The notes under the pieces were generated by a model. It saw nothing but the letters and a program-made list of their open reading frames with translations. It was not told the DNA's origin and did not search any database. A stretch of DNA of 45,413 nt. Origin: a virus. Positions within the stretch are counted from its first letter, which is position 1, and each line of letters starts with the position of its first letter. Shown one piece after another: positions 2,598 through 40,320 of the stretch. Both the position numbers and the translations under genes were made by a program. The stretch lies in IMG/VR virus record IMGVR_UViG_3300050821_007995, positions 1 to 45,413 of that record. One strand, written 5' to 3'.

Positions 2598-2924
2598 TTA
2601 TCGGCCAGTCGGGCCGGTTGGAAGTGTGCCGCTCGGCGGCATTGGCGTTCCTATTACTACCACTGGTATCCCCGGCGGAGCCGAGCTAGGCGGCGTCGGC
2701 CCAGAGACCGGAGCAGGCGGTGGTAGCGGGGGGAGAACTACCGTTCCTTCCATCTGCGCCCTGAACAGCTGGGCCGACTGATATTTCGCTAGCGCGATTG
2801 CATAGATATCCGTGTCGATTGCGCCTACGGCCGGCCCGATCTGCGCGCCGGCCCCTTGCACGGCAGCCGTAATGCCACAGCCAGAGAGAAGGAGAAGAAC
2901 CATCAGGCCGAAGATAATTTTCAT
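2598..2924 (-). CDS. Proline-rich lipoprotein, o-spanin-like (108 aa)
   Basis: The start is set at the ATG at 2924, which overlaps the TGA of the upstream gene (ATGA). This gives a textbook lipoprotein signal: Lys at position 2, hydrophobic run, then LLLLSGC with the lipidated Cys near residue 16. The mature part has a short helical region and then a long Pro/Gly-rich tail (PPLPPPAPVSGPTPP and PTGPTGR). Lipid anchor plus Pro-rich extended region is typical of outer-membrane spanin subunits. A virion lipoprotein or exclusion protein is an alternative. An in-frame ATG at 2933 is also possible. Confidence 0.7.
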   Translation of the reverse strand: MKIIFGLMVLLLLSGCGITAAVQGAGAQIGPAVGAIDTDIYAIALAKYQSAQLFRAQMEGTVVLPPLPPPAPVSGPTPPSSAPPGIPVVVIGTPMPPSGTLPTGPTGR

Positions 2925-4555
2925 TGCACGCATATCACTGAGAAAGTGTGAGTAGCCATCGTGGCGAGAGAAGCAAAGACCATAGCAGAGGCGGTTAGCG
3001 AGGTGATCGCAAGCTGATCTCCGGCAGTTCCCGGAGTTATGTTACATGTCGGCGCGTATGCCCAAGCTCCGCTTGGGAAGTTCACCTGACAGGAAGTGAC
3101 CGTTCCAGTGCCAACCGTCCCAGAGAATTTATTACTAATGCCACCGATACTTGGTGTGCCTCCGCATGAGGCAACCGTCACGTTGACAAAGTTCTGATTG
3201 TGGAAATCTGGAAAGCTGCCATGTAGGTTGACCAGCCCGACGCTGCCAACCGGATAAGCTCCGTCAAAATATGCGCCTGTGCTATCCGTATCCACGGCAT
3301 ACGGCGTCGCCACGCTGGTGAAGTTTGTGCCAGTTATCCGCGTTGTTGGCGCGCCGAGCACGTGGATCGGGGCAATACTGCCGGAACTTATCGTCACGTT
3401 GACGAATTGCGGCGCCGTTACCGTAACCCCAGTCGGCTTAAACGTTCCGACAGAGCTTGTGCCAATGTAAAGAAGTTGCGGACTGTCTGTGAAGTCTCTA
3501 AACTGCGGCGCGACGATAGCGCCTTGCTGTACGTTCCCGGACAGAACGATGCCATTCGCACTAGTCGCTTCCGCATCAACTAGCACACCAACAATGGACA
3601 CATTTTGAATAATTCCGCCAGCCGTCAGCGGATCGATGAAGAAACCTGTTGGGCAATTAAGGGCGCGACTACCGATAACTTGATAGTTTATTCCAACGCC
3701 GTCATGTGTTGCTGTTGTGTCCGCAGCGTTGAATAGAAAGCCGGCGCCAGTAGTGCAATAGACAGTGTCATTTATCGCTGAGGCGTCCGTTGGACTGTCC
3801 CAGTGATCGAAGCCACCATTTAGCGAATTAGCCGCCACGCTACTTTCGACCAGTGTGTCAGCACTAGCGAGAAACGCTGTGCAGTCGGCCAGCTTGTCGC
3901 AACTTATATTGGAAACGCGGACGAATTGAGCGTTCCGGACGAAGACGCCAATGAGGGAGCCAACTACCGTTCCAGGAACTTTATTCCCATCAATATGGAG
4001 GTCTTTAACTTCTATATGCTTATCCGCGAAGACACTACCATGCTGTGTCGCGGTGACACCGCCGCAGTTTGTGTTAGCGAAAATAGGATCCCACGTAGCG
4101 TTGTCCGACGTAGCGGAGCAGTGTCCGGCTGTGCCGGCTGCATTCCATGTTGCTGAGGGTTGGATAACGCTGGCTGCACCATAACCTGCCAGCGTTTGGT
4201 TACCGCCTGGGCAAAAGTACATTGTACTGCTGACAACGTACGTCTTATTGCTCAGAAGCACATTCTTGCAAGTACTCAGCGCCCGCTGGATGGCTCCAGT
4301 ATCATCCGGCTCCGAAGCGTTTCGGTAGTTGTCGGGTGAGGTAACGCCAGGCGGATAGCCGACCACACCTGGAGGAATGTCTGGAACTATAAGGGCTCGA
4401 CAGAGCGGCGCCGCAGGTACGCCACTTGCCGGGCCAGCCATGACTGAGTTCGGCCCACAAAGGCCGGGGGCGTCAGCCCAGGCCGCGCCTGCAGCTAGGC
4501 TTAGCCAAGCGGCAACGCCGGCCGCTAGGCTAAGACGAAGTCTCGGACTTATCAT
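2921..4555 (-). CDS. Secreted right-handed beta-helix protein, pectate-lyase/tailspike-like (544 aa)
   Basis: ATG at 4555 preceded by AGGGACAGG. Residues 1-27 look like a Sec signal peptide: basic start (SPRLRLS), hydrophobic core, and a cleavage-type AWA-DAP. The mature region has the opening DDTGAIQRALSTCKNVLL, the usual first rung of pectate-lyase-3-type beta helices, followed by many short repeated strands (for example IEVKDLHIDGNK, NVSIVGVLVDAEA). The C-terminal 90 residues (FPSGAWAYAPTCNIT...) form a separate small domain with Cys pairs. Likely a polysaccharide depolymerase. The export signal is unusual for a virion tailspike, which is normally folded in the cytoplasm, so a freely secreted enzyme is possible. 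It lies directly downstream of the small terminase candidate. Confidence 0.8.
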   Translation of the reverse strand: MISPRLRLSLAAGVAAWLSLAAGAAWADAPGLCGPNSVMAGPASGVPAAPLCRALIVPDIPPGVVGYPPGVTSPDNYRNASEPDDTGAIQRALSTCKNVLLSNKTYVVSSTMYFCPGGNQTLAGYGAASVIQPSATWNAAGTAGHCSATSDNATWDPIFANTNCGGVTATQHGSVFADKHIEVKDLHIDGNKVPGTVVGSLIGVFVRNAQFVRVSNISCDKLADCTAFLASADTLVESSVAANSLNGGFDHWDSPTDASAINDTVYCTTGAGFLFNAADTTATHDGVGINYQVIGSRALNCPTGFFIDPLTAGGIIQNVSIVGVLVDAEATSANGIVLSGNVQQGAIVAPQFRDFTDSPQLLYIGTSSVGTFKPTGVTVTAPQFVNVTISSGSIAPIHVLGAPTTRITGTNFTSVATPYAVDTDSTGAYFDGAYPVGSVGLVNLHGSFPDFHNQNFVNVTVASCGGTPSIGGISNKFSGTVGTGTVTSCQVNFPSGAWAYAPTCNITPGTAGDQLAITSLTASAMVFASLATMATHTFSVICVQ

Positions 4556-5685: not shown

Positions 5686-5734
5686 AGAGCTGTAAAGACA
5701 CCAGATACGCGTCTACACTCAGACAGGAGAACAC

Positions 5735-6205
5735 ATGACGAACGAATATCTACCATTCGGCGGCCCGAGCGTTAAGCGCTCACGCAACACGCGTCGTCGT
5801 ATCACCTGGACAAACTATTCGTTTGCATACGAGAACGTTTGGCACTTATTCAGCGAACACCGAAAAGTTGTACTCGGCCCGGGACCCCGCTCCGAGATGC
5901 TCAAAATCCGTCAACGCTTCTACGAGCACCGCTATCTCGTCAGTGAAGCCGCTGCCCTAGGCGACACTAAAGCACAAGAGCTTATGATACTAGTCAGAGA
6001 TGCTTACACACAGTTCGTCGATTGCCCTAACGGGCAAGTCGAGCTACACATCGTGCCTGACCCGGCGATAGCTTATGTGAATGAAGCTTTGGAGAAGGCA
6101 GGCGCATGGACACAGCCACCGCTTACGCAAGCGGAGCTAGATGAGCAAGCGAAGAAAGAAATGATAGAAGAGATAAGGAAACAGCTTGACAAGACTGAGC
6201 TTTAG
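5735..6205 (+). CDS. Hypothetical early protein (156 aa)
   Basis: First gene of the rightward arm; ATG with AGGAG 7 nt upstream. The N-terminus is basic (KRSRNTRRRITWTNY), the middle is helical and mixed in charge, and the C-terminus is an acidic/basic coiled-coil-like helix (ELDEQAKKEMIEEIRKQLDK). No enzyme motif is seen. Being first from the control region it is expected to be expressed immediately, so a host-takeover or regulatory role is plausible. The family is not recognised. Confidence 0.75.
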   Translation: MTNEYLPFGGPSVKRSRNTRRRITWTNYSFAYENVWHLFSEHRKVVLGPGPRSEMLKIRQRFYEHRYLVSEAAALGDTKAQELMILVRDAYTQFVDCPNGQVELHIVPDPAIAYVNEALEKAGAWTQPPLTQAELDEQAKKEMIEEIRKQLDKTEL

Positions 6206-6214
6206 GCTTATGTT
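6186..6214 (+). promoter_or_regulatory. Candidate promoter inside the end of the first early gene
   Basis: Consensus TTGACA (6186-6191), 17-nt spacer, TATGTT (6209-6214). It would start transcription just before the gene at 6243. The -35 box is within the coding end of the preceding gene. Confidence 0.5.
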
Positions 6215-6242
6215 TAGGCTGTTGTTTAACGAGGAGAGTAAG

Positions 6243-6491
6243 ATGATCGCACGCGACGAAGACGGCAAATTCTTAGCTTTCACTCAGCTGGGTATGTATC
6301 CTATTTATCACGTCTGTGCAGATGGTGGCGTGTTGTGCCATGATTGTGTGAACAACCAAGCCGATGTCGGCACGTCGCCTAATACGCCCGCGGACTGGCG
6401 CATTGTCGCCAGCGACATCAACTATGAAGATCCTGACTTACAATGTGACCATTGCAACAAACGGATCGAAAGCGCTTACGCTGAGGATTGA
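6243..6491 (+). CDS. Small Cys-rich, zinc-ribbon-like protein (82 aa)
   Basis: ATG at 6243 with GAGGAGAG upstream; an upstream in-frame start at 6186 is less likely because it overlaps the previous gene and has no ribosome site. The protein has one Cys cluster in the middle (HVCADGGVLCHDCVNN) and a second C-terminal pair (LQCDHCNKRIESA). Two CxxC-type knuckles suggest zinc binding. Similar short proteins of unknown function are common in phage early regions. No specific function is assigned. Confidence 0.75.
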   Translation: MIARDEDGKFLAFTQLGMYPIYHVCADGGVLCHDCVNNQADVGTSPNTPADWRIVASDINYEDPDLQCDHCNKRIESAYAED

Positions 6492-6521
6492 TCGTTAAAG
6501 ATCGCAAAGGAGGAGGAAGCG

Positions 6522-6755
6522 ATGAGGTTCTATACCGATCCGGCGCGCGAGGCAGACAGCTATTCTCTACCGGACGCCGAAGTCTTTTACATAAACAAGA
6601 CTGAGCGTCGCATCCATGCTGGTTACGACAATGATCCTGGCGAGCCAGGCTGGTACTATTGGTATTGCTTTCCCGGCTGTCTGCCAGATAGCGACCCGAT
6701 CGGACCATTCGCGAACGAAGCGGAAGCTATTGTCGATGCAAGGGAGAACGCATGA
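6522..6755 (+). CDS. Hypothetical early protein (77 aa)
   Basis: ATG at 6522 after a strong AAAGGAGGAGGAAGC site. Aromatic-rich centre (PGWYYWYCFPGCLPDSDPIG) followed by the phrase GPFANEAEAIVDARE. The pattern G-P-F-x(2-4)-EA-x-A at the end is shared by many small phage and bacterial proteins of unknown function. The stop overlaps the next start (ATGA). Confidence 0.75.
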   Translation: MRFYTDPAREADSYSLPDAEVFYINKTERRIHAGYDNDPGEPGWYYWYCFPGCLPDSDPIGPFANEAEAIVDARENA

Positions 6756-6922
6756 CTTACACTGTATCACCCTGCCCTTGCGGCCATCGTGCCTGTCGTA
6801 ATTGGCACGTAAGCTGGGTTGCAAGCGTCCAAGGCGTGCGCTTCACAGAGGCGCAGGCGCGTGCCGTAGCAGCGTTGCTGAACAAGATGGAAAAGGAGGA
6901 GCCTTCGGCCTTCGACTCTTGA
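6752..6922 (+). CDS. Small Cys-rich early protein (56 aa)
   Basis: The ATG at 6752 overlaps the stop of the previous gene (ATGA), indicating coupled translation. The N-terminus has a compact Cys/His set (CPCGHRACRNWHVS), and the rest is a short strand and a helix (FTEAQARAVAALLNKME). It resembles small phage proteins in which a Cys knuckle precedes a strand-helix unit; the function is unknown. The promoter at 6919-6948 begins within its stop codon. Confidence 0.7.
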   Translation: MTYTVSPCPCGHRACRNWHVSWVASVQGVRFTEAQARAVAALLNKMEKEEPSAFDS

Positions 6923-6948
6923 CAAACCATGGGCCTTCGGCCTATAAT
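6919..6948 (+). promoter_or_regulatory. Consensus sigma70 promoter
   Basis: TTGACA (6919-6924), 18-nt spacer, TATAAT (6943-6948): both boxes match the consensus fully. It lies directly upstream of the gene at 6983. The spacer contains GGCCTTCGGCC, a short self-complementary element. It is the best promoter match found by eye in the window. Confidence 0.85.
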
Positions 6949-6982
6949 CTTACCGTTAACCCCTCAGCCTGAAAGGCAAACA

Positions 6983-7573
6983 ATGGCAACCGAGACAGAA
7001 GGAAAGCGTATCCGTATTGCGCGCTCAAGCGTGGACGGCGCGCACTGCGTGACGAAGTTTTACGTAGGCGACGAGCCGGGCGCATGGCCCGTGCTTCGCA
7101 CAGACACGAGTGCGTACTCCGATCGCATTCAGCATGAGCTAGCCGCAACCGGCCTCGCATACCTGCAGACGCAAGCGTACGCAGGCGAGACACAAGACCC
7201 AGAAGTGGCCATGTCGCTCGTGCGTGCATTGCATACATCACTTAACGATGGCACATGGCAGCCCGGCCGTGTCGGCGACGGCAGCGGCAGCGGACCAACA
7301 GAGTTGGTCCTCGCCCTAGAGCGCGTGCTCGCGAAGAACCACGTTGAGAAGCCGGGTGAGTACCAAGAGTACACTCGCCAGCAAATCGAAGACATGGTCG
7401 AGCCCATGACACCCGCCGAGAAGCGCAAGCTTCACGCCGATCCGGCCCTTGCAGGCGCTATCGCGGACATTCGCATGGAGAAGGCCCGCAAGCTTAAGGC
7501 AAGCGTGAAGGGCAAGCCTGCTGGCGCGCTCGGCGCACTCTTTGGCAAGCCTTCACTGCAAGCGGCAGAGTAG
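6983..7573 (+). CDS. Hypothetical early protein, strongly promoted (196 aa)
   Basis: The start at ATG 6983 is preferred (AAAGG upstream); an upstream in-frame start at 6929 would lie inside the promoter. The protein is soluble and rich in Ala, Lys and Glu. It has a central Gly/Ser linker (GDGSGSGPTE), then a helical region (RQQIEDMVEPMTPAEKRKLH) and a basic C-terminus (KARKLKASVKGKPAG). No catalytic motif is recognised. The consensus promoter in front and the hairpin behind (7596-7617) suggest a separately expressed, abundant early protein. A DNA- or host-protein-binding role is possible but unproven. Confidence 0.75.
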   Translation: MATETEGKRIRIARSSVDGAHCVTKFYVGDEPGAWPVLRTDTSAYSDRIQHELAATGLAYLQTQAYAGETQDPEVAMSLVRALHTSLNDGTWQPGRVGDGSGSGPTELVLALERVLAKNHVEKPGEYQEYTRQQIEDMVEPMTPAEKRKLHADPALAGAIADIRMEKARKLKASVKGKPAGALGALFGKPSLQAAE

Positions 7574-7595
7574 CTTAAGTGTTGTAATAACAGAA

Positions 7596-7617
7596 AGGGG
7601 AGCCAACTGGCTCCCCT
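7596..7617 (+). terminator. Stem-loop after the 196-aa gene
   Basis: AGGGGAGCC (7596-7604), loop AACT, GGCTCCCCT (7609-7617): perfect 9-bp stem. There is no T-run after it, so it may be a pause, a processing site or a weak terminator. Confidence 0.55.
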
Positions 7618-7628
7618 GGGAGGCTATC

Positions 7629-7805
7629 ATGTGGGTTATCGTCGCCTTTACACTTACAGCTAACCTGTTTGTGATGAGCCATGTTTATGACACACGGGCG
7701 GAATGCGGCGCCGCTCTCGGCGCCGGTCTCATACGCGACGCAGCGCAAGTCAACCACAAACGTATGGTGCGAAGCGCTCAGTGCGTGGAGGTAATTCAAC
7801 AATAA
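7629..7805 (+). CDS. Small membrane protein (58 aa)
   Basis: ATG at 7629 with GGAGG 7 nt upstream; the longer frame from 7542 would run through the stem-loop and the previous gene. An N-terminal transmembrane helix (WVIVAFTLTANLFVM) is followed by about 35 polar residues containing two Cys (AECGAAL and SAQCVEV). This is the pattern of a small single-pass protein with the polar part exposed. The family is not recognised. Confidence 0.65.
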   Translation: MWVIVAFTLTANLFVMSHVYDTRAECGAALGAGLIRDAAQVNHKRMVRSAQCVEVIQQ

Positions 7806-7819
7806 TCGACGGGCTGGCT

Positions 7820-8002
7820 ATGTACAAATACAGAGCACAACGCAACACGCCAACACGACTAGACCTTGCACAAGACTTAAGAGCGATTAGACGGCAATCG
7901 CCAGCAATGGCTCGAATTATATGGAAGGCTATAAAGAGGACGGAAGATAATTTAGTAGAGAGGCTATTCTTCGCTCTCCCCGCTGAGGATAACGAAGGGT
8001 AG
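7820..8002 (+). CDS. Small basic hypothetical protein (60 aa)
   Basis: ATG at 7820; an in-frame start at 7703 would overlap the previous gene and encode only Arg-rich out-of-frame sequence. The product is helical and basic (QDLRAIRRQSPAMARIIWKAIKRTED). The last 39 nt overlap the end of the minus-strand lipoprotein gene (7964-8173). Function unknown; the basic helices could bind nucleic acid. Confidence 0.6.
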   Translation: MYKYRAQRNTPTRLDLAQDLRAIRRQSPAMARIIWKAIKRTEDNLVERLFFALPAEDNEG

Positions 8003-8173
8003 AATGTCCCAGGGATAGGGAGCAGAGCTCCCTATCGGGACTGCGAACCCGGGTCGGTGCGTGTCGGCGAGGGCTTCGCCCAAGAGGCCCGCGTCGCCCG
8101 GCGCGCAGCCGGTCAGGGCAGCAACCGCGATCGCGCCGAATATCACCATCCAGAACCATTTATCCGCATCCAC
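7964..8173 (-). CDS. Small lipoprotein in an inverted cassette (69 aa)
   Basis: GTG start at 8173 with GGAGAG 5-6 nt upstream on the minus strand. The N-terminus (DADKWFWMVIFGAIAVAA) leads to a lipobox LTGC with Cys near residue 23, then a short polar mature part of about 45 residues ending SGESEE. It faces against all surrounding early genes. Small phage lipoproteins are known to block receptors or DNA entry of competing phages, so superinfection exclusion is a reasonable hypothesis. An o-spanin is another. The ORF could be extended upstream to 8329, but that part lacks a ribosome site. Confidence 0.65.
   Translation of the reverse strand: MDADKWFWMVIFGAIAVAALTGCAPGDAGLLGEALADTHRPGFAVPIGSSAPYPWDILPFVILSGESEE
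8014..8036. repeat. Perfect 10-bp stem-loop
   Basis: GATAGGGAGC (8014-8023), AGA, GCTCCCTATC (8027-8036), with outer GTCCC/GGGAC pairing beyond it. It lies just after the plus-strand gene ending at 8002 and inside the minus-strand lipoprotein gene. It may terminate rightward transcripts; no T-run is seen. Confidence 0.65.
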
Positions 8174-8250
8174 AGCCGCTCTCCGTGGCCCGTAGGGCCA
8201 TATACATTTCGTGGAATGCGCAAGTGGCACATTCGCGCTCCGCGAGCAAG

Positions 8251-8277
8251 AGGGGTGCGACAACACATCGCACCCCT
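8251..8277. repeat. Perfect 10-bp stem-loop
   Basis: AGGGGTGCGA (8251-8260), 7-nt loop, TCGCACCCCT (8268-8277). It lies in the 174-bp space between the two parts of the inverted cassette, upstream of the lipoprotein gene. Confidence 0.7.
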
Positions 8278-8318
8278 GCCTTATGGTTAACACATTCTTG
8301 TCACAAGACTTTACGAAT

Positions 8319-8343
8319 AAACACTTCACATCCCGAAGTGTTT
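8319..8343 (-). terminator. Stem-loop after the inverted membrane-protein gene
   Basis: AAACACTTC (8319-8327), 7-nt loop, GAAGTGTTT (8335-8343). Read on the minus strand the stem ends in GTTTATT, a short U-rich tail, and it lies 5 nt after the stop of the gene at 8348. A rho-independent terminator for the upstream pair of the inverted cassette is likely. Confidence 0.6.
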
Positions 8344-8347
8344 CGTG

Positions 8348-8593
8348 CTACAACCATCTCACCAAGCGGGCCACTACAATAAAAAGCAGAAGGTGAACCA
8401 GCAATGAGATCACACGACGCTTTCCCCTCCATAGCTCTAATCTCACGGCCGACCCGTATAGCTCTTGCTTCTTCCACCAACTGTGAAGCCAGCGGAACCA
8501 TGCGAGACCGCGCACAGCGTCGAAGCCGCCAGCGACATGCCGCCCACCGTCCAGGTCATAGAGCACAACCTTCCAGTCATGATAGTGCCTCAT
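8348..8593 (-). CDS. Tail-anchored small membrane protein in inverted cassette (81 aa)
   Basis: The ATG at 8593 overlaps the TGA of the upstream minus-strand gene (ATGA). The first 55 residues are polar and aromatic (DWKVVLYDLDGGRHVAGG and WFRWLHSWWKKQELYG). The C-terminus is one hydrophobic helix (VISLLVHLLLFIVVARLV) with no room for a second domain, so the protein would be anchored by its tail. A terminator-like stem-loop follows the stop. It belongs with the gene at 8590-8817; the function is unknown. It is supported over the long opposite-strand ORF by coupling and ribosome sites. Confidence 0.6.
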   Translation of the reverse strand: MRHYHDWKVVLYDLDGGRHVAGGFDAVRGLAWFRWLHSWWKKQELYGSAVRLELWRGKRRVISLLVHLLLFIVVARLVRWL

Positions 8594-8817
8594 GTCAACG
8601 TTCCACCCTTTCGACGGCAATCTGCCGCAGAGCGCCCCACTGGACAAGGGACATTTTTAGGCCCATTCCTTAACGAGCCAATGGTTAAGCCTGTGGTATC
8701 CTGCCACAAGTCTATGAGCGTGGGGACTAAGTCTTTGTTACACTTGCACCAGCTTTTAACTAAACGCGCCAGTCTTTCGGCCAGTCTTCCGTTTCCAGTA
8801 TATATATTATGCGACAT
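8590..8817 (-). CDS. First gene of inverted cassette, basic Cys-containing protein (75 aa)
   Basis: ATG at 8817 with a very good ribosome site (TTGGAGGGAGCG) directly upstream on the minus strand. The product begins SHNIYTGNGRLAERLARLVK, followed by KCNKDLVPTLIDLWQDTTG, and ends in a Cys/Arg-rich tail (VPCPVGRSAADCRRKGG). No family is recognised. Its end overlaps the next cassette gene (ATGA). Being antisense to the early operon, it would need its own promoter; a TTGACA exists at 8870-8875 (minus) but without a good -10. Confidence 0.6.
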   Translation of the reverse strand: MSHNIYTGNGRLAERLARLVKSWCKCNKDLVPTLIDLWQDTTGLTIGSLRNGPKNVPCPVGRSAADCRRKGGTLT

Positions 8818-9017
8818 CGCTCCCTCCAAGGTTGACGTAACCTTACAGCGTCTTCGGCGCTCTACGTCGTGTCAAGCGCTTAACCAATTAACTAAACCGC
8901 GTCTGTTAACGACGTGGCTAGCCCAGCGCAGAAGGCGCCAAACCTCGCTTATCCCGAGGGCCTGGGCGAACGGTGCAACCTACCCCTGGACAGCGGAAGT
9001 GGTTGGGCTTGCCAGCT

Positions 9018-9209
9018 ATGGCAACGCTTATGCGTAGTCGTGGCAGTCACACAGGCGCGCCGCACGAGCGGCTTAACGTCGATCTCCCTGTCACTCTGCT
9101 CGACCGCGTCCGGCTCCGCCTTCTCGACCCGTCGACTGGCGTCGCTCGCTACGGCGCCATGCGAACGTGCGTTATCGAAGCCCTTAGCCTATGGCTGGAG
9201 AGACAATGA
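9018..9209 (+). CDS. Ribbon-helix-helix-like DNA-binding protein (63 aa)
   Basis: ATG at 9018 is preferred over a GTG at 8973; a second ATG at 9030 is also possible. After a short basic N-terminus comes RLNVDLPVTLLDRVRLRL, then YGAMRTCVIEALSLWLERQ. A short strand with alternating residues, then a helix, a turn and a second helix is the ribbon-helix-helix (Arc/CopG) layout. These proteins act as dimeric or tetrameric regulators. It is therefore a candidate for binding one of the operator-like repeats. The stop overlaps the next start (ATGA). Confidence 0.6.
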   Translation: MATLMRSRGSHTGAPHERLNVDLPVTLLDRVRLRLLDPSTGVARYGAMRTCVIEALSLWLERQ

Positions 9210-9343
9210 TAGATCCCACAGATAGTGCCAAGATCATCCTAAATCTGATCAAGGCTGACTTGGCGCTTGGTCGGGAGCCACAGGCTCTTGCTCTCTTACG
9301 GAGAGCGCTCATCACACGCAGAAGGGGGAACATAATAGGATGA
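9206..9343 (+). CDS. Small hypothetical protein (45 aa)
   Basis: Short ORF linked to both neighbours by ATGA overlaps (start 9206, stop 9341-9343). One amphipathic helix (SAKIILNLIKADLALG) followed by a basic helix (ALALLRRALITRRRG). The function is unknown. It is accepted mainly because of the exact coupling at both ends. Confidence 0.6.
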   Translation: MIDPTDSAKIILNLIKADLALGREPQALALLRRALITRRRGNIIG

Positions 9344-9756
9344 TCGACCTTCTTGACCGGATGATTACTGACGCGAAGACACGTGCATCTCGCGCACAGC
9401 TAGTCAGAGAGGCTGCCCCGCTTTCCCCCCGAGCGGCTGGTTGTGGCCCATCTGGCGAGGGGGAGGGAGGCAAGTCTGGCACCTCCCTCCCCCGCTCTCT
9501 CATCTTACAGACAACCGAAACCTTTTGTACGAACTGCGGCGCGCGCTACCGCGCCCCAGGCTATGCCATCCTAGCAGAGTATGCCTTTAACGAAGTCTCA
9601 ATCTGCCGAACGATGGACGACGTTAGGCGGCAAGAGCGAGATTACCAGCGTGTGCTGATTGAACAAGGCCAGGCCACACATCAATTCTGCCCAAGACTTC
9701 CGCGTGAGTATCGTACGCTTACTGTCCACGCGCCAGCTTGCGAGGCATGCTTCTAA
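9340..9756 (+). CDS. Hypothetical protein with zinc-ribbon-like Cys pairs (138 aa)
   Basis: ATG at 9340 overlaps the preceding stop. After a helical N-terminus (residues 1-27) comes a Gly/Ser/Pro-rich linker encoded by a perfect 12-bp inverted repeat (9459-9493). The rest has CTNCGARYRAP near residue 64, a single Cys further on (TICR-type, at SICRT) and a closing ACEACF. The two CxxC pairs suggest zinc binding. The hairpin in the middle raises the possibility that two units were joined or that expression is controlled inside the gene. No family is recognised. Confidence 0.6.
   Translation: MIDLLDRMITDAKTRASRAQLVREAAPLSPRAAGCGPSGEGEGGKSGTSLPRSLILQTTETFCTNCGARYRAPGYAILAEYAFNEVSICRTMDDVRRQERDYQRVLIEQGQATHQFCPRLPREYRTLTVHAPACEACF
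9459..9493 (+). repeat. Perfect 12-bp GC-rich stem-loop inside an ORF
   Basis: GGGGGAGGGAGG (9459-9470), 11-nt loop, CCTCCCTCCCCC (9482-9493). It is the longest perfect stem noticed by eye and lies in the linker of the gene at 9340-9756. The purine strand also has runs of G. Confidence 0.75.
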
Positions 9757-9763
9757 TAATCGG

Positions 9764-9798
9764 AGAACCCCTCCGATCATCCCGCACCTCGGGGTTCT
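9764..9798 (+). terminator. Stem-loop between early genes
   Basis: AGAACCCC (9764-9771) pairs with GGGGTTCT (9791-9798) around a 19-nt loop. A competing small stem CGGAG/CTCCG (9761-9775) overlaps its 5' arm. It lies just before the ribosome site of the secreted-protein gene at 9819, so it could be a terminator or a switch between two folds. Confidence 0.45.
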
Positions 9799-9818
9799 GG
9801 GGTAGGAGTTTACTTACC

Positions 9819-10001
9819 ATGAATAGGCTTATTGCCATCAGTGCTATCGTTATGTTGTTAGCAATCAGTAACGCAAGCAGCGCCCGTGCCGATTTCTGGT
9901 CCGACTTTGTCGATATGTTCAACGGCTTCGGCGACGGGCTCGGCAACGGCGGAACTAGCAATGGCAACGGCAATGGCAACGGAAACATCACTTTAGGCTA
10001 A
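9819..10001 (+). CDS. Small secreted Gly/Asn-rich protein (60 aa)
   Basis: ATG at 9819 with AGGAG upstream; the frame from 9738 runs through the stem-loop and is rejected. Residues 1-24 form a Sec signal peptide (NRLIAISAIVMLLAISN, then SSARA as the cleavage site). The mature peptide of about 36 residues is DFWSDFVDMFNGFGDGLG followed by repeated Asn-Gly pairs ending NITLG. An aromatic amphipathic start plus a flexible NG-rich tail could act on membranes or in the periplasm. No homologous family is recognised. Confidence 0.7.
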   Translation: MNRLIAISAIVMLLAISNASSARADFWSDFVDMFNGFGDGLGNGGTSNGNGNGNGNITLG

Positions 10002-10009
10002 AACCCCCA

Positions 10010-10028
10010 GGCGGGTGAAAGGCCCGCC
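10010..10028 (+). repeat. Short GC stem-loop after the secreted-peptide gene
   Basis: GGCGGG (10010-10015), 7-nt loop, CCCGCC (10023-10028), directly after the stop at 10001. A weak terminator or stabilising 3' hairpin is possible. Confidence 0.45.
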
Positions 10029-10052
10029 ACCCTTACAAATGCAAGGTCTGAG

Positions 10053-10220
10053 ATGTTTAGATATGTTGCCGACACATTCAACGAGCCAGAGCACGGCAAG
10101 CTCGTGCCGGATGGACGGAAAGATCCGAAGCCGCCGTGTAATTGTCACGAATTAGGAGGAGCGCGACGCGGCAACCACCATCCTAATTGCAACATCAGGG
10201 TGGGACGCGGCGATGGCTAG
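10053..10220 (+). CDS. Small Cys/His-rich protein (55 aa)
   Basis: ATG at 10053; the stop overlaps the start of the next gene by 8 nt. The second half has a tight Cys/His set: PPCNCHELGG then GNHHPNCNIRVGRG. Such a CxCH...HHxxC arrangement fits binding of one zinc ion. The function is unknown. Confidence 0.6.
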   Translation: MFRYVADTFNEPEHGKLVPDGRKDPKPPCNCHELGGARRGNHHPNCNIRVGRGDG

Positions 10221-10404
10221 AGAGGGAAGAGACAAGCTAATCGATATCGCTTGTACAATCACTGGGGAGACAGGGAAAGCCTTCCGTATCGATCACGGCG
10301 GCGAAGACGATGTGTGGGTCCCGAAGTCGCTATGTGAATGGAGTACCGAAGACGGCACTATGACAATGCCAGAGTGGTTAGCAATGGACAAGGGCCTGAT
10401 CTAA
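10213..10404 (+). CDS. Hypothetical early protein (63 aa)
   Basis: ATG at 10213. The phrase ETGKAFRIDHGGEDDVWVPK, later TMTMPEWLAMDKGLI, matches a pattern widely found in small phage proteins: a predicted beta sandwich start with x-W-[IV]-P-K-S and an end with MPEWLA-x-KGLI. Function is unknown in that family as far as I know. The stop overlaps the next ATG (TAATG). Confidence 0.75.
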   Translation: MAREGRDKLIDIACTITGETGKAFRIDHGGEDDVWVPKSLCEWSTEDGTMTMPEWLAMDKGLI

Positions 10405-10598
10405 TGTCCGTACGCAGTGAGGCCAGACGGGAATTCCGACGACAGATGCGACACCTCATACACGTGATGCGAGAGAACAGTTGCCATCGGAAGATGCGGC
10501 ACTGCATGTCAGCAGCATTGGAAACGCCCGGGCCCGTAGAGATCGATCCCGAGGAGTTCGATGCAGCGAACCGCTTACCAAGGAGAAAAGACCAATGA
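10404..10598 (+). CDS. Small basic hypothetical protein (64 aa)
   Basis: ATG at 10404 overlaps the previous stop by 1 nt. The Arg-rich helix SVRSEARREFRRQMRHLI is followed by another basic helix with Cys (SCHRKMRHCMSAALE) and an acidic end. It is coupled to the next gene by ATGA. The charge suggests nucleic acid binding; no family is recognised. Confidence 0.6.
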   Translation: MSVRSEARREFRRQMRHLIHVMRENSCHRKMRHCMSAALETPGPVEIDPEEFDAANRLPRRKDQ

Positions 10599-10849
10599 GT
10601 GATGCCCTACGAACAATGCTAATGGCTTCAGCCTTGGCCGAAGCCGAACCGGACACTGACCCAGCAGTGCTTCTGGCACAAGTCCAGGCAAAGATACGAC
10701 AAGGCGTTGAGCCGACGGATGATGAGATGAGGCAAGTTATCCTCGCCGCCCGCGCAGGCCGGCGCAGTGCCGCCACTGGCCAGAGGAAGAGCAGGGCTAC
10801 CGCTCCAAGTATCAGCGTTGACACGCTATTCAAGCGGCCAGGGGTATGA
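10595..10849 (+). CDS. Hypothetical protein (84 aa)
   Basis: ATG at 10595 with AAGGAGAAAAG upstream; the longer frame from 10481 is rejected because it overlaps the previous gene. An acidic, Ala-rich N-terminal half (ALAEAEPDTDPAVLLAQV, then VEPTDDEMRQVILAARAG) is followed by a basic tail (RRSAATGQRKSRATA). The phrase P-T-D-E-x-R-x-V-I-L-x-A-R-x-G-R-R-S is common in small phage proteins of unknown function. Confidence 0.7.
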   Translation: MSDALRTMLMASALAEAEPDTDPAVLLAQVQAKIRQGVEPTDDEMRQVILAARAGRRSAATGQRKSRATAPSISVDTLFKRPGV

Positions 10850-11013
10850 AAACAGAGCGTCAGCGTTGCCTTGACATCGTACAATGTGGCATAGACAGAC
10901 ACAAACAATCTCTAAGAAGTGAATACATTGATGCAAGAGGCCGTATTAACCATTGGTACGCCATTAGTGCGCTTATGAAAGTGTATGACAAGATTAACTC
11001 GGAGGGCATATAA
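10846..11013 (+). CDS. Small hypothetical protein (55 aa)
   Basis: ATG at 10846 overlaps the previous stop (ATGA) and its TAA overlaps the next ATG (TAATG). Begins KTERQRCLDIVQCGIDRHK and continues as mixed helices (RINHWYAISALMKVYDKIN). Accepted on coupling at both ends; function unknown. Confidence 0.6.
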   Translation: MKTERQRCLDIVQCGIDRHKQSLRSEYIDARGRINHWYAISALMKVYDKINSEGI

Positions 11014-11198
11014 TGATAGAATTAGGGCCAAAGTTCTACTGCGACAAATGCCATTTTAGTCATACGCCAGAACATGGTTGTTATAGAGGAACGCCACCAT
11101 GCCAGAAGCCATCTTTCCAGCCGTCATCGACAATACAATCCGTTCCGACTTCAAAGCCTGCGAGCATCAGTGGTTCAGGCGGCACTGCCAAGGGCTGA
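11013..11198 (+). CDS. Small Cys-containing protein overlapping the nuclease gene (61 aa)
   Basis: ATG at 11013 is coupled to the previous stop. The first 30 residues hold a Cys/His set (FYCDKCHFSHTPEHGC). The remaining half is Ser/Pro/Gly-rich and lies in a different frame over the first 100 nt of the nuclease gene, so that part may be unconstrained. Possibly a minimal zinc finger; the call is moderate. Confidence 0.5.
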   Translation: MIELGPKFYCDKCHFSHTPEHGCYRGTPPCQKPSFQPSSTIQSVPTSKPASISGSGGTAKG

Positions 11199-12067
11199 CG
11201 CCTAAGTCTACGCTAAACCTACACCTGCATTTCGGCGGCTGCTTCGCCAGAGGGTTAGAGGTAACGCGGAAGACTTACCATGCGCATGGCGCCAGCGAAT
11301 ATTCAATCTTAACCGGCGCGCGGGCGGCGCTCGGCGCCTGGGGCGACTACGAAATGCCAGACGTGCCGCCGCCTGCGGCCTATAAGACACCTCAAGCATT
11401 GCTTGACGCTCTCTTTTCTTACTTCGTAGAGTATCCGCTCGCCACTGATCGCATCCGGCCGCTCAACCTTGGTGACGGCCCTATAGTTGAAACAAGCTTC
11501 GCCGTACCCATTCCCGGCTGCTATCACCCGGTCAGTGGCGAGCAGCTGACCTACTCTGGCCGCTTTGATATGGTCGGGACCATCGGTTCAGCCGTTTGGG
11601 TAGTCGATGAAAAGACCAGTTCCCAACTCGGCGATCGCTGGCGGGATAAATGGTCACTAGACGCCCAGCCAACTGGTTACTGCTGGGGCCTTCGCCAATA
11701 CGGGCTTAGCCCCGTAGGGGCTATTATCCGAGGCATTGGTATTCTCGGACGTGACATCACCTTCGCCGAAAGCATACAGCCCAGGTCTCCCTGGCAAATC
11801 GACCAGTGGCTCCATCAACTAATCGCTGATGTAGAGCGTATGACACAATGCTGGTACGAGTATCAAGACATACTCAGTCACGAGATGCCAGAATGGACAC
11901 TAAGCGATCCTGAAGGAGCTGCCTTCCCTCGCGCTTTAGATAAAGACATTTGCCACGCCTACGGCCACCCATGCGCCTTCGTCCCCCTGTGCTCTTCAAA
12001 CACACCAGAAGCATGGATGGACGAATACATCGTCAAGCACTGGGACCCTTTAGCAAGGAAGGAGTGA
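11099..12067 (+). CDS. PD-(D/E)XK exonuclease, RecB/Cas4-like (322 aa)
   Basis: ATG at 11099 with GAGGAACG upstream. The core of a RecB-family nuclease is visible: GRFDMVG around residue 155, then VWVVDEKTSS (the D-x-K catalytic part) and QPTGYCWGLRQY (the Q-x-x-x-Y motif). Cysteines near the N-terminus (CEHQWFRRHC) and at the C-terminus (CHAYGHPCAFVPLC) are placed like the iron-sulfur ligands of Cas4/AddB-type enzymes. It is followed by a Sak4-like ATPase and a probable ssDNA-binding protein, a trio known in phage recombination/replication modules. Likely role: DNA end resection for recombination-dependent replication. Confidence 0.85.
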   Translation: MPEAIFPAVIDNTIRSDFKACEHQWFRRHCQGLTPKSTLNLHLHFGGCFARGLEVTRKTYHAHGASEYSILTGARAALGAWGDYEMPDVPPPAAYKTPQALLDALFSYFVEYPLATDRIRPLNLGDGPIVETSFAVPIPGCYHPVSGEQLTYSGRFDMVGTIGSAVWVVDEKTSSQLGDRWRDKWSLDAQPTGYCWGLRQYGLSPVGAIIRGIGILGRDITFAESIQPRSPWQIDQWLHQLIADVERMTQCWYEYQDILSHEMPEWTLSDPEGAAFPRALDKDICHAYGHPCAFVPLCSSNTPEAWMDEYIVKHWDPLARKE

Positions 12068-12071
12068 TGAC

Positions 12072-12269
12072 ATGCACATACGTCAATGGACAGCCCTTGA
12101 CCATGATCTTCGCGTATCGCTAATCGCCCTAGCCGACGCCGAGGCGAGCCAGCTCAACTCCCTACTCCGCCCGGACTATCGGCCGGAGCCCGTCCCGTGT
12201 ATCCCGGATGCAGAGATGCCCCGGGAGAGCTACACCCGTCAAGACTGGCCTGAAGCGTGGAACCTATGA
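12072..12269 (+). CDS. Small hypothetical protein in the recombination block (65 aa)
   Basis: ATG at 12072 after AAGGAAGGAG. Begins HIRQWTALDHDLRVSLIALA and ends SYTRQDWPEAWNL. Mixed helical, no Cys cluster and no membrane segment. The stop overlaps the next start. The family is not recognised; it may be an accessory factor of the adjacent nuclease. Confidence 0.65.
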   Translation: MHIRQWTALDHDLRVSLIALADAEASQLNSLLRPDYRPEPVPCIPDAEMPRESYTRQDWPEAWNL

Positions 12270-12544
12270 GTAAGCCATACTGGTCTAGCCCTACAATTCA
12301 TGACTGCTCAGCAATCGTGATAGATAAAATGGTTACACACGATGCTGTGGCTGGTACCGGAGGAGCGTGGTACACCAGGGTTATTCACTTCAAAGGCCCA
12401 GGGGGGAGAGAAATCTCCTTCTCTGTCTTCGGGGACTACCCAATAACCGTTAGTGTAGAGGAGGCGCAGAAGAATGAAGACGAACACATTACTAATGGGC
12501 CCGCTTGGGACAGGCAAGACGAGATCCCTACAAACCTTGATTGA
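12266..12544 (+). CDS. Hypothetical protein (92 aa)
   Basis: ATG at 12266 overlaps the previous stop (ATGA). Beta-rich centre (AWYTRVIHFKGPGGREISF, then GDYPITVSVEEAQ). Its last 71 nt overlap the start of the P-loop ATPase gene in another frame, where the text becomes polar and probably unconstrained. A small beta-barrel type protein is suggested by the strand pattern; function unknown. Confidence 0.6.
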   Translation: MSKPYWSSPTIHDCSAIVIDKMVTHDAVAGTGGAWYTRVIHFKGPGGREISFSVFGDYPITVSVEEAQKNEDEHITNGPAWDRQDEIPTNLD

Positions 12545-13256
12545 ATGCGGCGTCGGCGTCCGTGTGATCAGCATGGAGCCAGGCATCGAAGACGTGCTTG
12601 GAGACATTAGCTGCGCCGATGGCCTACACTGGCGCTACGTAAAGCCCCTACCGCTCTCACTAGGCGAAATCATGTCGTTCATCAAGAGAATGAACGTCAT
12701 GGGCGTTAAAGCCCTCGCCGAAACCAGCGACCCTAATCGCGGCAAATACACAGGATACTTCGATGTCTTTGAGACGTGTAATTCGTTCGTTTGCGATCGG
12801 TGTGGCGAGTGCCTTGGTGGAGTGGAGCACTGGGACAGCACAACCGCTTTGGCTATGGACGGTCTTAGCGGTTTGTCTAGCCTTTGCCTCCAGTGCCTTG
12901 TTGGGGCAAAGCCCTTCGTAAGCCTGCCGGAATACAAAGCTGCGCAGGAAGCTATCGAAGTCCTCATGAAATGGTGCTTGTCTCAAAACTGTAGCGTTAT
13001 CCTTCTAGCACATACGGATCGAGAGGTCATCCATGAGACCGGAATGGTCTTAACGACAGCCCATACGATCGGTAATAAGCTCGCGCCGAAGCTGACGAAG
13101 ATGTTCAGCGAAGTGCTGATCGCAAAGCGAAGCGAGGGACCAAGACCAAGTTTCACTTGGTCTAACAACGAGCCCGGCATGGAGACGAAGACCCGCAGGC
13201 TCCCTTGGAGCGACAAGCTCGCGCCTGACTTTGGTCAACTCTTTAAGGAGACATGA
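12474..13256 (+). CDS. Sak4-like P-loop ATPase, putative recombinase (260 aa)
   Basis: ATG at 12474 with GAGGAGG upstream. The Walker A motif LLMGPLGTGKTRSL is at residues 6-20, and a Walker-B-like strand NCSVILLAHTDRE lies near residue 175. A Cys-rich insertion (FVCDRCGECLGG, then LSSLCLQCL) interrupts the core near residues 100-145 and may bind zinc. The AAA/RecA-like fold next to a Cas4-like nuclease and an SSB-like gene is typical of phage Sak4-type single-strand annealing/recombination ATPases. Size fits that group. The inserted Cys cluster is unusual. Confidence 0.8.
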   Translation: MKTNTLLMGPLGTGKTRSLQTLIECGVGVRVISMEPGIEDVLGDISCADGLHWRYVKPLPLSLGEIMSFIKRMNVMGVKALAETSDPNRGKYTGYFDVFETCNSFVCDRCGECLGGVEHWDSTTALAMDGLSGLSSLCLQCLVGAKPFVSLPEYKAAQEAIEVLMKWCLSQNCSVILLAHTDREVIHETGMVLTTAHTIGNKLAPKLTKMFSEVLIAKRSEGPRPSFTWSNNEPGMETKTRRLPWSDKLAPDFGQLFKET

Positions 13257-13257
13257 C

Positions 13258-13452
13258 ATGGCAGGATCTTACGCACACTGTGTGGGATTAGACGGAAAGT
13301 TCTGTTTTGACCTAATCGACAACATGAGTGACGCTCATGAAGCCTGTAAAATGATGTTCGGCATGATACAAATCCTAGCTGAACGTATAGGAGACGAATA
13401 TAACGTAATAGAGGCGGCTGAACTAGAATATTACAAGAGAGAAAGGACTTAA
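13258..13452 (+). CDS. Small hypothetical protein (64 aa)
   Basis: ATG at 13258 with AAGGAGACATGAC upstream. Begins AGSYAHCVGLDGKFCFDLID, followed by a helical half rich in Met and Glu (EACKMMFGMIQILAERIGDE). Lies between the ATPase and the SSB-like gene in the same operon. No family recognised. Confidence 0.65.
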   Translation: MAGSYAHCVGLDGKFCFDLIDNMSDAHEACKMMFGMIQILAERIGDEYNVIEAAELEYYKRERT

Positions 13453-13454
13453 CT

Positions 13455-13937
13455 ATGCCCGATTTCACCGGCTTCGATCCCAGGTCGCTTCTAGCGACCA
13501 CAGTCAAAGCGAAGCTTGACACAAAGCTTCCACCTATCCCGCTGACGGAAACAGACGAGTTCCCGTTGCTCTGTTCCAAGGTCGACGTCCGCACGATCAC
13601 AGGTAAGAAAGACGGTCAACAATACATCACCCTTGACCTGACCTATCGCGTCATGGACGAGAGTATTGCGGCACAGATGAACATCGAACAGCCTACCTGC
13701 CGCTATAGCTTCATCCTAGAAGTAAACCAAGGTGGCATGCTTGAGGTTGGCCCGTCGAAGAATATCAAGCTCGGCCGGCTTCTCGAGGCTTCTGGCATCC
13801 ACTCAAAGGAGTGGAGCCTTTCGATGCTCGAAGGCACCACGTGCTTCGGCAAGATTGCCCACCGCCCGGATGAAGATGATCCGGAGATCATTTACAACGA
13901 AGTCAAGCGCGTAGCGGCGACGCCAAAGAGGCGCTAG
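13455..13937 (+). CDS. Probable single-strand DNA-binding protein, DUF669-like (160 aa)
   Basis: ATG at 13455, 2 nt after the previous stop. A beta-rich protein with strands ITLDLTYRVMDE and YSFILEVNQGGMLEVG, then the helical phrase NIKLGRLLEASGI and the closing strand GTTCFGKIAHRPDEDDPE. An OB-fold-like protein of this size, with a conserved phrase of the type G-x-L-x-G-x-x-x-x-x-I-x-H-x-P, beside a Sak4-type ATPase is typical of phage single-strand DNA-binding proteins (DUF669-like). It probably coats ssDNA for the recombinase and the polymerase. The assignment is by pattern and context. Confidence 0.65.
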   Translation: MPDFTGFDPRSLLATTVKAKLDTKLPPIPLTETDEFPLLCSKVDVRTITGKKDGQQYITLDLTYRVMDESIAAQMNIEQPTCRYSFILEVNQGGMLEVGPSKNIKLGRLLEASGIHSKEWSLSMLEGTTCFGKIAHRPDEDDPEIIYNEVKRVAATPKRR

Positions 13938-13941
13938 CGCT

Positions 13942-13956
13942 GAGCGCACTGCGCTC
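13942..13956 (+). repeat. Short stem-loop before the polymerase gene
   Basis: GAGCGCA, C, TGCGCTC: perfect 7-bp inverted repeat in the 66-nt gap between the SSB-like gene and the TTG start of the polymerase gene. May attenuate or separate expression; no T-run. Confidence 0.4.
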
Positions 13957-14003
13957 TCACGACATCTTTCGCGCCATAGCGCTCTTACGTCAGGAGGGAT
14001 ACC

Positions 14004-15806: not shown

Positions 15807-15844
15807 TGAGAAACTCCGTAACGGTTATGTTTGAAGGAGAAATA

Positions 15845-16021
15845 ATGGCTACAGTTGAGGTAGAATTTTTAGGTAATGGAAAGGTAGCCATACACTTACC
15901 AACTAAAGGATCAGTATCAACGCCTTGGAACGAGAGTTCACCGATAACACCAGCACCCTTACCACACTACGATAAGCTAATTCTACCCATGTCGGCATTT
16001 TTCCATACGAGGATAGCATGA
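15845..16021 (+). CDS. Small protein inside the split polymerase locus (58 aa)
   Basis: ATG at 15845 with a strong AAGGAG site; a start at 15803 that overlaps the polymerase stop is also possible. Begins ATVEVEFLGNGKVAIHLPT (two strands), then Ser/Pro-rich. It is the first of three genes between the polymerase halves. Coupled to the next gene by ATGA. Function unknown. Confidence 0.6.
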   Translation: MATVEVEFLGNGKVAIHLPTKGSVSTPWNESSPITPAPLPHYDKLILPMSAFFHTRIA

Positions 16022-16314
16022 CCATCTCCCCAGAGAACTACCTCCACTGCAACAGCGACAACTGGATTAGCGTCCGGAGCGCCGATGGCGTTCTACTCGG
16101 CTGTATCCCTGGGCCCCCTCCGCAGGAGGATTGGCTCCCTGCTCCCCCTCCTCTCGGCAACGTTGAGGTACGCGCCGCCCTAATGTATTGCCTCGTGCCA
16201 ACTGCAGAGCAGCTGCCACTGCTTCACAGCTGGCCCGGCTTCATCCCAGTCACACCGGGGCCGAAGGCGGCTTTGCCGCCTGGCGACCAATCCGACCTGG
16301 GCCAAGCACCATGA
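16018..16314 (+). CDS. Small Pro-rich protein inside the split polymerase locus (98 aa)
   Basis: ATG at 16018 (ATGA overlap) and stop overlapping the next start (ATGA). Begins TISPENYLHCNSDNWISVRS, followed by a strand VLLGCIPG and Pro-rich loops (PPPQEDWLPAPPPLG). The last third (HSWPGFIPVTPGPKAALPPG) is also Pro-rich. No enzymatic motif. It is possibly a small adaptor joining the split polymerase parts, which is speculation from position only. Confidence 0.55.
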   Translation: MTISPENYLHCNSDNWISVRSADGVLLGCIPGPPPQEDWLPAPPPLGNVEVRAALMYCLVPTAEQLPLLHSWPGFIPVTPGPKAALPPGDQSDLGQAP

Positions 16315-16889: not shown

Positions 16890-16890
16890 C

Positions 16891-28335: not shown

Positions 28336-28511
28336 TAGTCAACAACCCCAATGATCGAATTAACGAATTCCACTGCCTCCTCACGAGTGCTGAAGTGTAA
28401 AGTCACAGACCTCTCCTCCTGATCGTCTAGGACTATATGAGCCTCTAAAGCAGCCAGTAGTCTTTCCATCTTCATCCGTCGCCGATGCTCTTTCAATTCA
28501 TCGTTTATCAT
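28335..28511 (-). CDS. Small hypothetical protein (58 aa)
   Basis: ATG at 28511 overlaps the upstream stop (ATGA) and the TAA overlaps the next ATG (TAATG). A charged helix (NDELKEHRRRMKMERLLAA) is followed by a strand (RSVTLHFSTREEAVEFVNSI). The second half is a strand-helix unit often found in small phage proteins. Function unknown; it lies within the ejection-protein block. Confidence 0.65.
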   Translation of the reverse strand: MINDELKEHRRRMKMERLLAALEAHIVLDDQEERSVTLHFSTREEAVEFVNSIIGVVD

Positions 28512-40318: not shown

Positions 40319-40320
40319 AC

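What the first reader, a model, noticed from the sequence alone, without database searches (positions are those of the whole stretch)
7964..8817. Inverted cassette with a lipoprotein in the early arm
Three minus-strand genes interrupt about 13 kb of plus-strand genes: a basic Cys protein with an excellent ribosome site, a tail-anchored membrane protein coupled by ATGA, a terminator-like stem-loop, and a separate small lipoprotein (LTGC). The set has the look of a moron. Membrane proteins plus lipoprotein could block superinfection or DNA entry of competitors.
Basis: partly seen in the sequence, partly recalled or inferred. Interest (0 to 1): 0.7.

Follow-up and report, generated by a model that had tools for sequence, protein, structure and literature searches.

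The report
Backward lipoprotein genes in phage arm
In an uncultured phage of soil or water bacteria, three small genes that run against their neighbours are genuine, conserved in one other phage, and form two separate units (a tiny lipoprotein, and a coupled pair of unknown proteins) whose start regions share a short DNA signal with a neighbouring early gene; what they do to the host is unknown.

Summary
Window 7964-8817 holds three minus-strand genes inside a 13-kb plus-strand arm: a 69-aa lipoprotein (7964-8173), an 81-aa protein g2 (8348-8593) and a 75-aa basic protein g1 (8590-8817), with g1 and g2 joined by ATGA. A relative (L091, record G004) keeps all three on the minus strand with the same starts, the ATGA overlap and the lipobox. 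pN/pS is 0.39 (g2), 0.55 (lipoprotein) and 0.65 (g1), against 0.88 for the opposite ORF 8465-9037, so that ORF is rejected. It is not one cassette: in L091 a plus-strand gene separates the lipoprotein from g2, so there are two units. New here: the palindrome GTTAAC sits upstream of g1, of the lipoprotein and over the predicted start site of the early promoter at 6919, in both phages; it is the most intergenic of the palindromic hexamers. No family or structure matched any of the three proteins. A moron-like, sporadic host-interaction role is plausible; superinfection exclusion is unproven.

The parts
7964..8173 (-). Small lipoprotein, 69 aa, GTG start, lipobox AALTGC; 47 residues after cleavage; residue +2 is Ala
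   Evidence: 58% identical to L091:2826-3035 with the same start; pN/pS 0.55; SD GGAG at 7 nt, in L091 AGGAGG at 6 nt; typical phage codon usage, best of six frames
8348..8593 (-). g2, 81 aa; conserved block GGFDAVRGLAWFRWLH; hydrophobic C-terminus clear in the window only
   Evidence: 63% identical to L091:3788-4054; pN/pS 0.39, as in neighbouring genes; low-confidence model, strands and helices, pLDDT 60
8590..8817 (-). g1, 75 aa, basic; ATGA overlap with g2; weakest coding evidence of the three
   Evidence: 45% identical to L091:4051-4278; pN/pS 0.65, third-position P 0.054; its ends may be held by the start region and by the g2 ribosome site
7596..7617 (-). Likely terminator of the minus-strand lipoprotein transcript: 9-bp stem, then T-rich tail
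   Evidence: counterpart at L091 2627-2602 minus
8320..8342 (-).
8870..8885 (-). Conserved promoter block of g1: GGTTAAGC, then TTGACA, at 68 and 58 nt before the start in both phages; no TATAAT-like hexamer at 17-18 nt
   Evidence: no hit here in the sigma-70 scan
8905..8910 (.). GTTAAC site upstream of g1 (93 nt; 88 nt in L091)
8286..8291 (.). GTTAAC site upstream of the lipoprotein (118 nt; 104 nt in L091)
6919..6960 (+). Early promoter TTGACA-18-TATAAT with GTTAAC (6955-6960) 6 nt after the -10, before the gene at about 6983-7573
   Evidence: 12 of 12 matches; L091 has TTGACA 1820, CACAAT, GTTAAC 1855
9018..9209 (+). Small divergent neighbour of g1 with DPxTG...W motif; by eye ribbon-helix-helix-like; candidate regulator (unproven)
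   Evidence: 81% identical in L091 and 34-42% in five other relatives; two helices predicted, pLDDT 66; no family or fold match
9340..9756 (+). Cys-rich plus-strand gene that in L091 lies between the lipoprotein and g2 (here displaced)
   Evidence: weak zinc-ribbon score only

Best explanation
The reverse-strand stretch is two separate accessory units set into the early arm of one lineage of an uncultured phage whose host is probably an alphaproteobacterium. Unit 1 is a lone small lipoprotein with its own start region and a terminator shared with the relative; it is probably exported and anchored by its Cys, and since residue +2 is Ala it probably goes to the outer membrane. Unit 2 is the g1-g2 pair, translated together through an ATGA overlap. 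Both units and the neighbouring plus-strand early promoter carry the same GTTAAC(C) signal, so one DNA-binding protein (phage-coded, or a host regulator) probably controls all three. The most likely role is host modification during infection, with the lipoprotein acting at the envelope, for instance by hindering another phage. Shown: gene reality, strand, start sites, two-unit order, shared signal. Inferred: export, regulation and every function. Rough odds: real genes 0.95 (g1 alone 0.8), two units 0.85, shared regulation 0.6, envelope role for the lipoprotein 0.5, superinfection exclusion 0.2.
For: Conservation of the three genes in L091 with starts, lipobox and ATGA; pN/pS and third-position excess; no match to the three genes in the other 7 relatives compared at protein level; 1 of 42 records for g2 and for the lipoprotein. 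Two units: order in L091. Terminator counterpart. GTTAAC: 3 of 3 sites in window 5700-18899 and 5 of 6 in L091 461-14155 are intergenic, where intergenic DNA is 13% and 16%; P 2e-6, first of the palindromic hexamers; second of 2054 strand-merged hexamers, behind the overlapping GGTTAA. Spacing kept upstream of g1 (68 and 58 nt in both) and at the early promoter (36 and 35 nt from TTGACA to GTTAAC). Host hint: GANTC 4 found, 100 expected in the window; 1 and 30 in L091; the most depleted word in both among those tested.
Against: Only two distinct phages carry the genes, so every rate rests on one pairwise comparison. g1 and g2 have atypical codon usage. No sigma-70 promoter is found for either minus unit. 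The signal-peptide n-region MDADK has net charge -1, unusual for a lipoprotein. The GTTAAC test uses my own gene lists, overlapping hexamers are not independent, and a 1-kb stretch of L091 (8618-9613) without a listed gene was counted as intergenic. No expression data exist. The host is unproven: no tRNA, and MAG contigs with the capsid gene come from unrelated phyla.
Confidence: 0.5

Rival explanations
1. Superinfection-exclusion module: the lipoprotein jams the phage's own receptor from the periplasm, and g1-g2 act at the inner membrane against incoming DNA.
For: Small lipoproteins do this in T5 and relatives (PMC9586334, passages read; the title of its reference 22 says expressed early). 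Sporadic distribution. Early-arm position. Exclusion genes overlapping on opposite strands are described in phage Fc02 (PMC9936078, passages).
Against: No second Cys in the mature lipoprotein of either phage, whereas Llp has a Cys11-Cys58 disulphide; not beside a receptor-binding gene; the g2 anchor is weak in L091; no match in PADLOC, PHROGs, Pfam or NCBIfam that supports a function.
Confidence: 0.2
2. The GTTAAC(C) sites are half-sites for the host cell-cycle regulator CtrA, so the early promoter and the two reverse units respond to the host cell cycle (as in the 'lytic deferment' phages).
For: TTAACC is intergenic in both early arms; one window site reads TGTGTTAACCAT, 11 of 12 to the TGCGTTAACCAT repeat that PMC9437464 reports for a Sphingomonas phage; near-absence of GANTC suggests an alphaproteobacterial host, and depletion is reported for about half of pelagiphages (PMC9516812, passages).
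Against: The defining dyad TTAA-N7-TTAA occurs 0 times in the window and 0 times in L091; with one mismatch none lies at these sites in the window and one does in L091 (3135). Over the whole window TTAACC is not enriched in gaps between ORFs of at least 100 aa: 1 of 18.
Confidence: 0.15
3. The divergent small protein at 9018-9209 is a phage ribbon-helix-helix repressor that binds GTTAAC and governs g1-g2, the lipoprotein and the early promoter.
For: It stays next to g1 in both phages and is 81% identical, the best conserved small gene of the arm; GTTAAC overlaps the predicted start site of the early promoter, a repressor position.
Against: No family hit for any of its 7 members beyond chance, no solved-structure hit and no fold match. 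It is also present in five relatives without the cassette; of these, G002 has one GTTAAC in 43 kb and the others were not counted for it.
Confidence: 0.25
4. g1 is not a functional protein but a translated leader that sets up g2 translation.
For: No synonymous change in its first 9 codons; its conserved C-terminus overlaps the g2 ribosome site; middle part pN/pS 0.65, the same as the antisense frame there.
Against: Same length (75 aa) in both phages, charge +7 in both, conserved WQDTTGL in the middle.
Confidence: 0.2

Closest known systems
Llp of phage T5 and Cor-type lipoproteins (PMC9586334, passages read)
   Same: Very small phage lipoprotein with a lipobox, apparently early
   Different: No disulphide Cys pair, not beside a receptor-binding gene, no detectable sequence match in the phage collection; receptor unknown
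Phage morons (HK97 gp15, P22 SieA and the like; recalled, with titles seen only in a search listing and a reference list)
   Same: Sporadic presence inside a conserved gene order; own terminator
   Different: Own promoter not recognised; lysogeny not shown; nothing is known of function
Opposite-strand exclusion genes of Pseudomonas phage Fc02 (PMC9936078, passages read)
   Same: Small genes on the strand opposite to an early operon
   Different: Fc02 genes overlap each other extensively and have tested exclusion activity; here there is only a possible short overlap with ORF 7820-8002 and no test
CtrA-controlled phages, 'lytic deferment' (PMC9437464, abstract, section 22 and passages read)
   Same: TTAACC-bearing sites clustered before genes of unknown function next to divergent genes
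   Different: No exact TTAA-N7-TTAA dyad anywhere in the window or L091

Membership tests
T5 Llp / Cor superinfection-exclusion lipoproteins | Short lipoprotein with lipobox | tested here: met
   LTGC and LTSC conserved
T5 Llp / Cor superinfection-exclusion lipoproteins | Cys pair forming a disulphide in the mature protein | tested here: not met
   Only the lipobox Cys is left in the mature protein of both phages; Llp has Cys11-Cys58
T5 Llp / Cor superinfection-exclusion lipoproteins | Gene beside the receptor-binding protein gene | tested here: not met
   Neighbours are early-arm genes
T5 Llp / Cor superinfection-exclusion lipoproteins | Blocks an outer-membrane receptor | not testable with these tools
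   none
Phage moron | Present in some, absent in other relatives at a conserved place | tested here: met
   Present in window, G001 and G004; not found in G002, G005, G015, G017, G021, G028 and the partial G014 nor in 41 of 42 records (several of these are fragments)
Phage moron | Own promoter | tested here: inconclusive
   Conserved TTGACA/GGTTAA block before g1 but no -10 hexamer
Phage moron | Own terminator | tested here: met
   7617-7596 and L091 2627-2602; the scans as a whole are not above shuffles
Phage moron | Expressed from a prophage | not testable with these tools
   Lysogeny unknown
CtrA-controlled (LPEG) phages | Clustered TTAA-N7-TTAA dyads | tested here: not met
   0 in window, 0 in L091
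CtrA-controlled (LPEG) phages | Alphaproteobacterial host with CtrA | tested here: inconclusive
   GANTC 4 found, 100 expected is only a hint
Ribbon-helix-helix regulators (gene 9018-9209) | Match to an RHH profile or fold | tested here: not met
   No hit; the strand-helix-helix reading is by eye, and two helices were predicted

The most novel reading that the evidence does not exclude
A compact phage switch: one regulator reading GTTAAC(C), either host CtrA through half-sites or the conserved small phage protein at 9018-9209, jointly gates the main early promoter and two reverse-strand host-modification units, one of them an envelope lipoprotein, so that the start of lytic growth and the sealing of the cell surface are set together by the state of the host.
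Probability: 0.12. Interest if true: 0.65.

Novelty: new member of a known kind. Interest (0 to 1): 0.35.

Why it matters
Three protein families without any match in the libraries searched are shown to be real genes, with corrected starts, so they can be cloned and tested. The shared GTTAAC signal ties them to an early promoter and gives a simple binding experiment. If the regulator were the host's CtrA, it would add a phage of another lineage to the few known to read the host cell cycle.

Tried and rejected
Opposite ORF 8465-9037: open in the same relative frame in L091, but pN/pS 0.88 overall, 2.2 over g2, 0.65 over g1 and 0.85 beyond, with no third-position excess: rejected as a gene. Over g1 alone it is not distinguishable from the sense frame.

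Lysis genes (holin, spanin): considered because the minus strand is the late strand; no lysis-family hit for the three genes, and the lipoprotein has no i-spanin-like partner beside it; rejected on anatomy.

Known families: no supporting hit in PHROGs, Pfam (one LPAM_1 lipobox hit, E 0.57, below its cut-off), PADLOC and NCBIfam (one weak CspE hit to L091 g1, E 0.008, 16 bits against a cut-off of 133, taken as chance). Solved structures: none of note. Fold search with the g2 model (pLDDT 60) gave nothing at E <= 0.001.

More relatives: scans of viral contigs with single proteins and alignments found only G001 and G004; genome contigs with g2 none; plasmids none for g2; phages none for g1, g2 and lipoprotein. 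Of the loci kept for the capsid gene (122 relatives found, best 80 kept) only records behind L134 and earlier were asked for g2 and the lipoprotein (42 records, with L091-L093); the weaker ones L135-L172 were not.

Rfam: three weak hits below gathering scores, taken as chance. Codon usage: supports the lipoprotein, neutral to negative for g1 and g2; a first version had wrong frames for some ORFs and was redone. The whole-genome TTAACC test used a crude ORF mask and showed no enrichment.

A survey of lipobox genes in the relatives found one other reverse-strand lipoprotein in an early arm, in G015: suggestive of a recurrent slot, but one case.

Full report
What the window is. It is a 45,413-base virus record. 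A near-identical record, G001 (IMGVR_UViG_3300020580_000032), covers 7974-45208 at 99.96% identity; its 14 differing alignment positions all lie outside the cassette. Late genes run on the minus strand; the early arm runs on the plus strand from 5735 to 18899. Colinear relatives (some circularly permuted) exist at 37-55% identity in the terminase, portal and ATP-grasp genes. The nearest cultivated phages by capsid protein are only 24-29% identical.

The three genes. g1 (8590-8817), g2 (8348-8593) and the lipoprotein (7964-8173) are on the minus strand. The key relative is L091 (record G004, IMGVR_UViG_3300050821_006346, 15,093 bases), found through a nuclease gene; most of its arm proteins are 54-80% identical. 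It carries all three on the minus strand: lipoprotein 2826-3035, g2 3788-4054, g1 4051-4278. The lipoprotein alignment begins exactly at a GTG with a ribosome site in both phages, which fixes the start.

Coding tests. Between the two phages pN/pS is 0.39 for g2, within the range of six flanking genes (0.29-0.39), 0.55 for the lipoprotein and 0.65 for g1; the opposite ORF has 0.88. Differences fall on third positions in 105 of 235 cases (P 2e-4); g1 alone is borderline (34 of 80, P 0.054), and the opposite ORF shows nothing (79 of 219, P 0.21). g1 has no synonymous change in its first nine codons and its last codons overlap the g2 ribosome site, so its middle part is the weak point of the coding case. 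Codon usage fits the phage for the lipoprotein and not for g1 or g2.

Not one cassette. In relatives the order is gene 6983-7573, then the Cys-rich gene (9340-9756 here), then the small DPxTG-W gene (9018-9209 here), then the nuclease (G002 and G017; others partly). In L091 the lipoprotein sits before and g2-g1 after the Cys-rich gene. In the window the Cys-rich gene lies behind the DPxTG-W gene, which brings the lipoprotein and g2 together. So there are two reverse-strand units, and the pair g2-g1 keeps the DPxTG-W gene as divergent neighbour in both phages.

Distribution. Of the 8 relatives' records compared protein by protein, only G004 matches any of the three. Profile searches of 42 records found g2 in 1 and the lipoprotein in 1, both times G004; many of the 42 are fragments. 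Scans of the viral collection gave only G001 and G004. The genome collection (g2), plasmids (g2) and phages (all three) gave nothing.

Protein features. The lipoprotein keeps its lipobox through a G-to-S change beside the Cys, and the stretch DAGLLGEALADTHR after it is identical. Its n-region has net charge -1, which is unusual. Residue +2 is Ala in both; by the E. coli sorting rule (recalled) that points to the outer membrane. The g2 C-terminus is clearly hydrophobic only in the window (2.34 against 1.61); the model is low confidence (pLDDT 60). g1 is basic (+7), with one conserved Cys of four.

Transcription signals. No sigma-70 match lies before the minus units. A stem with T-rich tail at 7617-7596, reading on the minus strand downstream of the lipoprotein, has a counterpart at L091 2627-2602. 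Terminator-like hits as a whole are no more frequent than in shuffles (7 against 6.7; 2 against 2.8), so the weight lies on their equal position.

A shared signal. GTTAAC occurs three times in window 5735-18899: over the predicted start of the promoter at 6919 (TTGACA-18-TATAAT), upstream of the lipoprotein, and upstream of g1. L091 has it at the same three places, plus two more nearby and one inside a coding gene. Against intergenic fractions of 0.13 and 0.16, 3 of 3 and 5 of 6 sites are intergenic, P 2e-6, first of the palindromic hexamers; the next has P 0.05. Among 2054 strand-merged hexamers it is second, behind the overlapping GGTTAA (3 of 6 and 9 of 9, P 2e-8), which counts some sites twice and one site in an L091 stretch without listed genes. 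Before g1 the spacing of GGTTAA (68 nt) and TTGACA (58 nt) is identical in both phages. Who reads the signal is open. The DPxTG-W gene resembles a ribbon-helix-helix protein to the eye, but no family, structure or fold search supported that (model). TTAACC resembles the CtrA half-site (half-site form recalled), but the defining dyad is missing.

Host hint. GANTC is almost absent: 4 found against 100 expected in the window, 1 against 30 in L091, and no other palindromic word tested is as depleted in these two. GANTC is methylated in Alphaproteobacteria, and depletion is reported in about half of 33 pelagiphages (PMC9516812, passages). This suggests, but does not show, an alphaproteobacterial host.

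Reading. The genes are real, sporadic and probably regulated as part of the early arm. A host-modification role, with the lipoprotein at the envelope, is the most likely reading. Superinfection exclusion is one possibility; the lipoprotein lacks two features of the Llp type. I found no report of these genes in the searches made, which covered only open-licence papers and used general terms.

Noticed in passing
window 1-45413; L091: GANTC is nearly absent: 4 found, 100 expected; 1 and 30 in L091. Also depleted in relatives G002 (6, 114 expected) and G021 (5, 89 expected) but less so in G005, G015, G017.
   Followed up: partly
L185:6346-6925 (record G015): Another relative has an unrelated reverse-strand pair with a lipoprotein (ITGC) in its early arm, just before the Cys-rich gene: possibly a recurrent slot for such genes.
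   Followed up: partly
window 39089-40393 (-): An ATP-grasp protein lies between portal and terminase genes and is kept in the relatives compared at 49-55% identity; in the phage collection only one record matches.
   Followed up: partly
window 14004-15806 and 16891-17661 (+): The DNA polymerase appears split into two ORFs with other genes between them; both parts are seen as separate ORFs in the relatives compared.
   Followed up: no
window 9819-10001 (+): A 60-aa early-arm protein with a signal-peptide-like start and an Asn-Gly repeat tail.
   Followed up: no
window 28508-29014 (-): A protein in the structural gene block, 47% identical in G002, looks like a GNAT acetyltransferase by eye (label recalled, not tested).
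   Followed up: no
window 8178-8295 (-): The 118 nt before the lipoprotein start fold more stably than shuffles (z -2.6) with a GGGGTGCGA hairpin; L091 also pairs CGGGTGCG with CGCACCCG there but is not significant (z -1.0).
   Followed up: partly
window 7820-8002 (+): A plus-strand ORF overlaps the end of the lipoprotein gene antisense by 39 bases; no counterpart in L091, so its reality is doubtful.
   Followed up: partly
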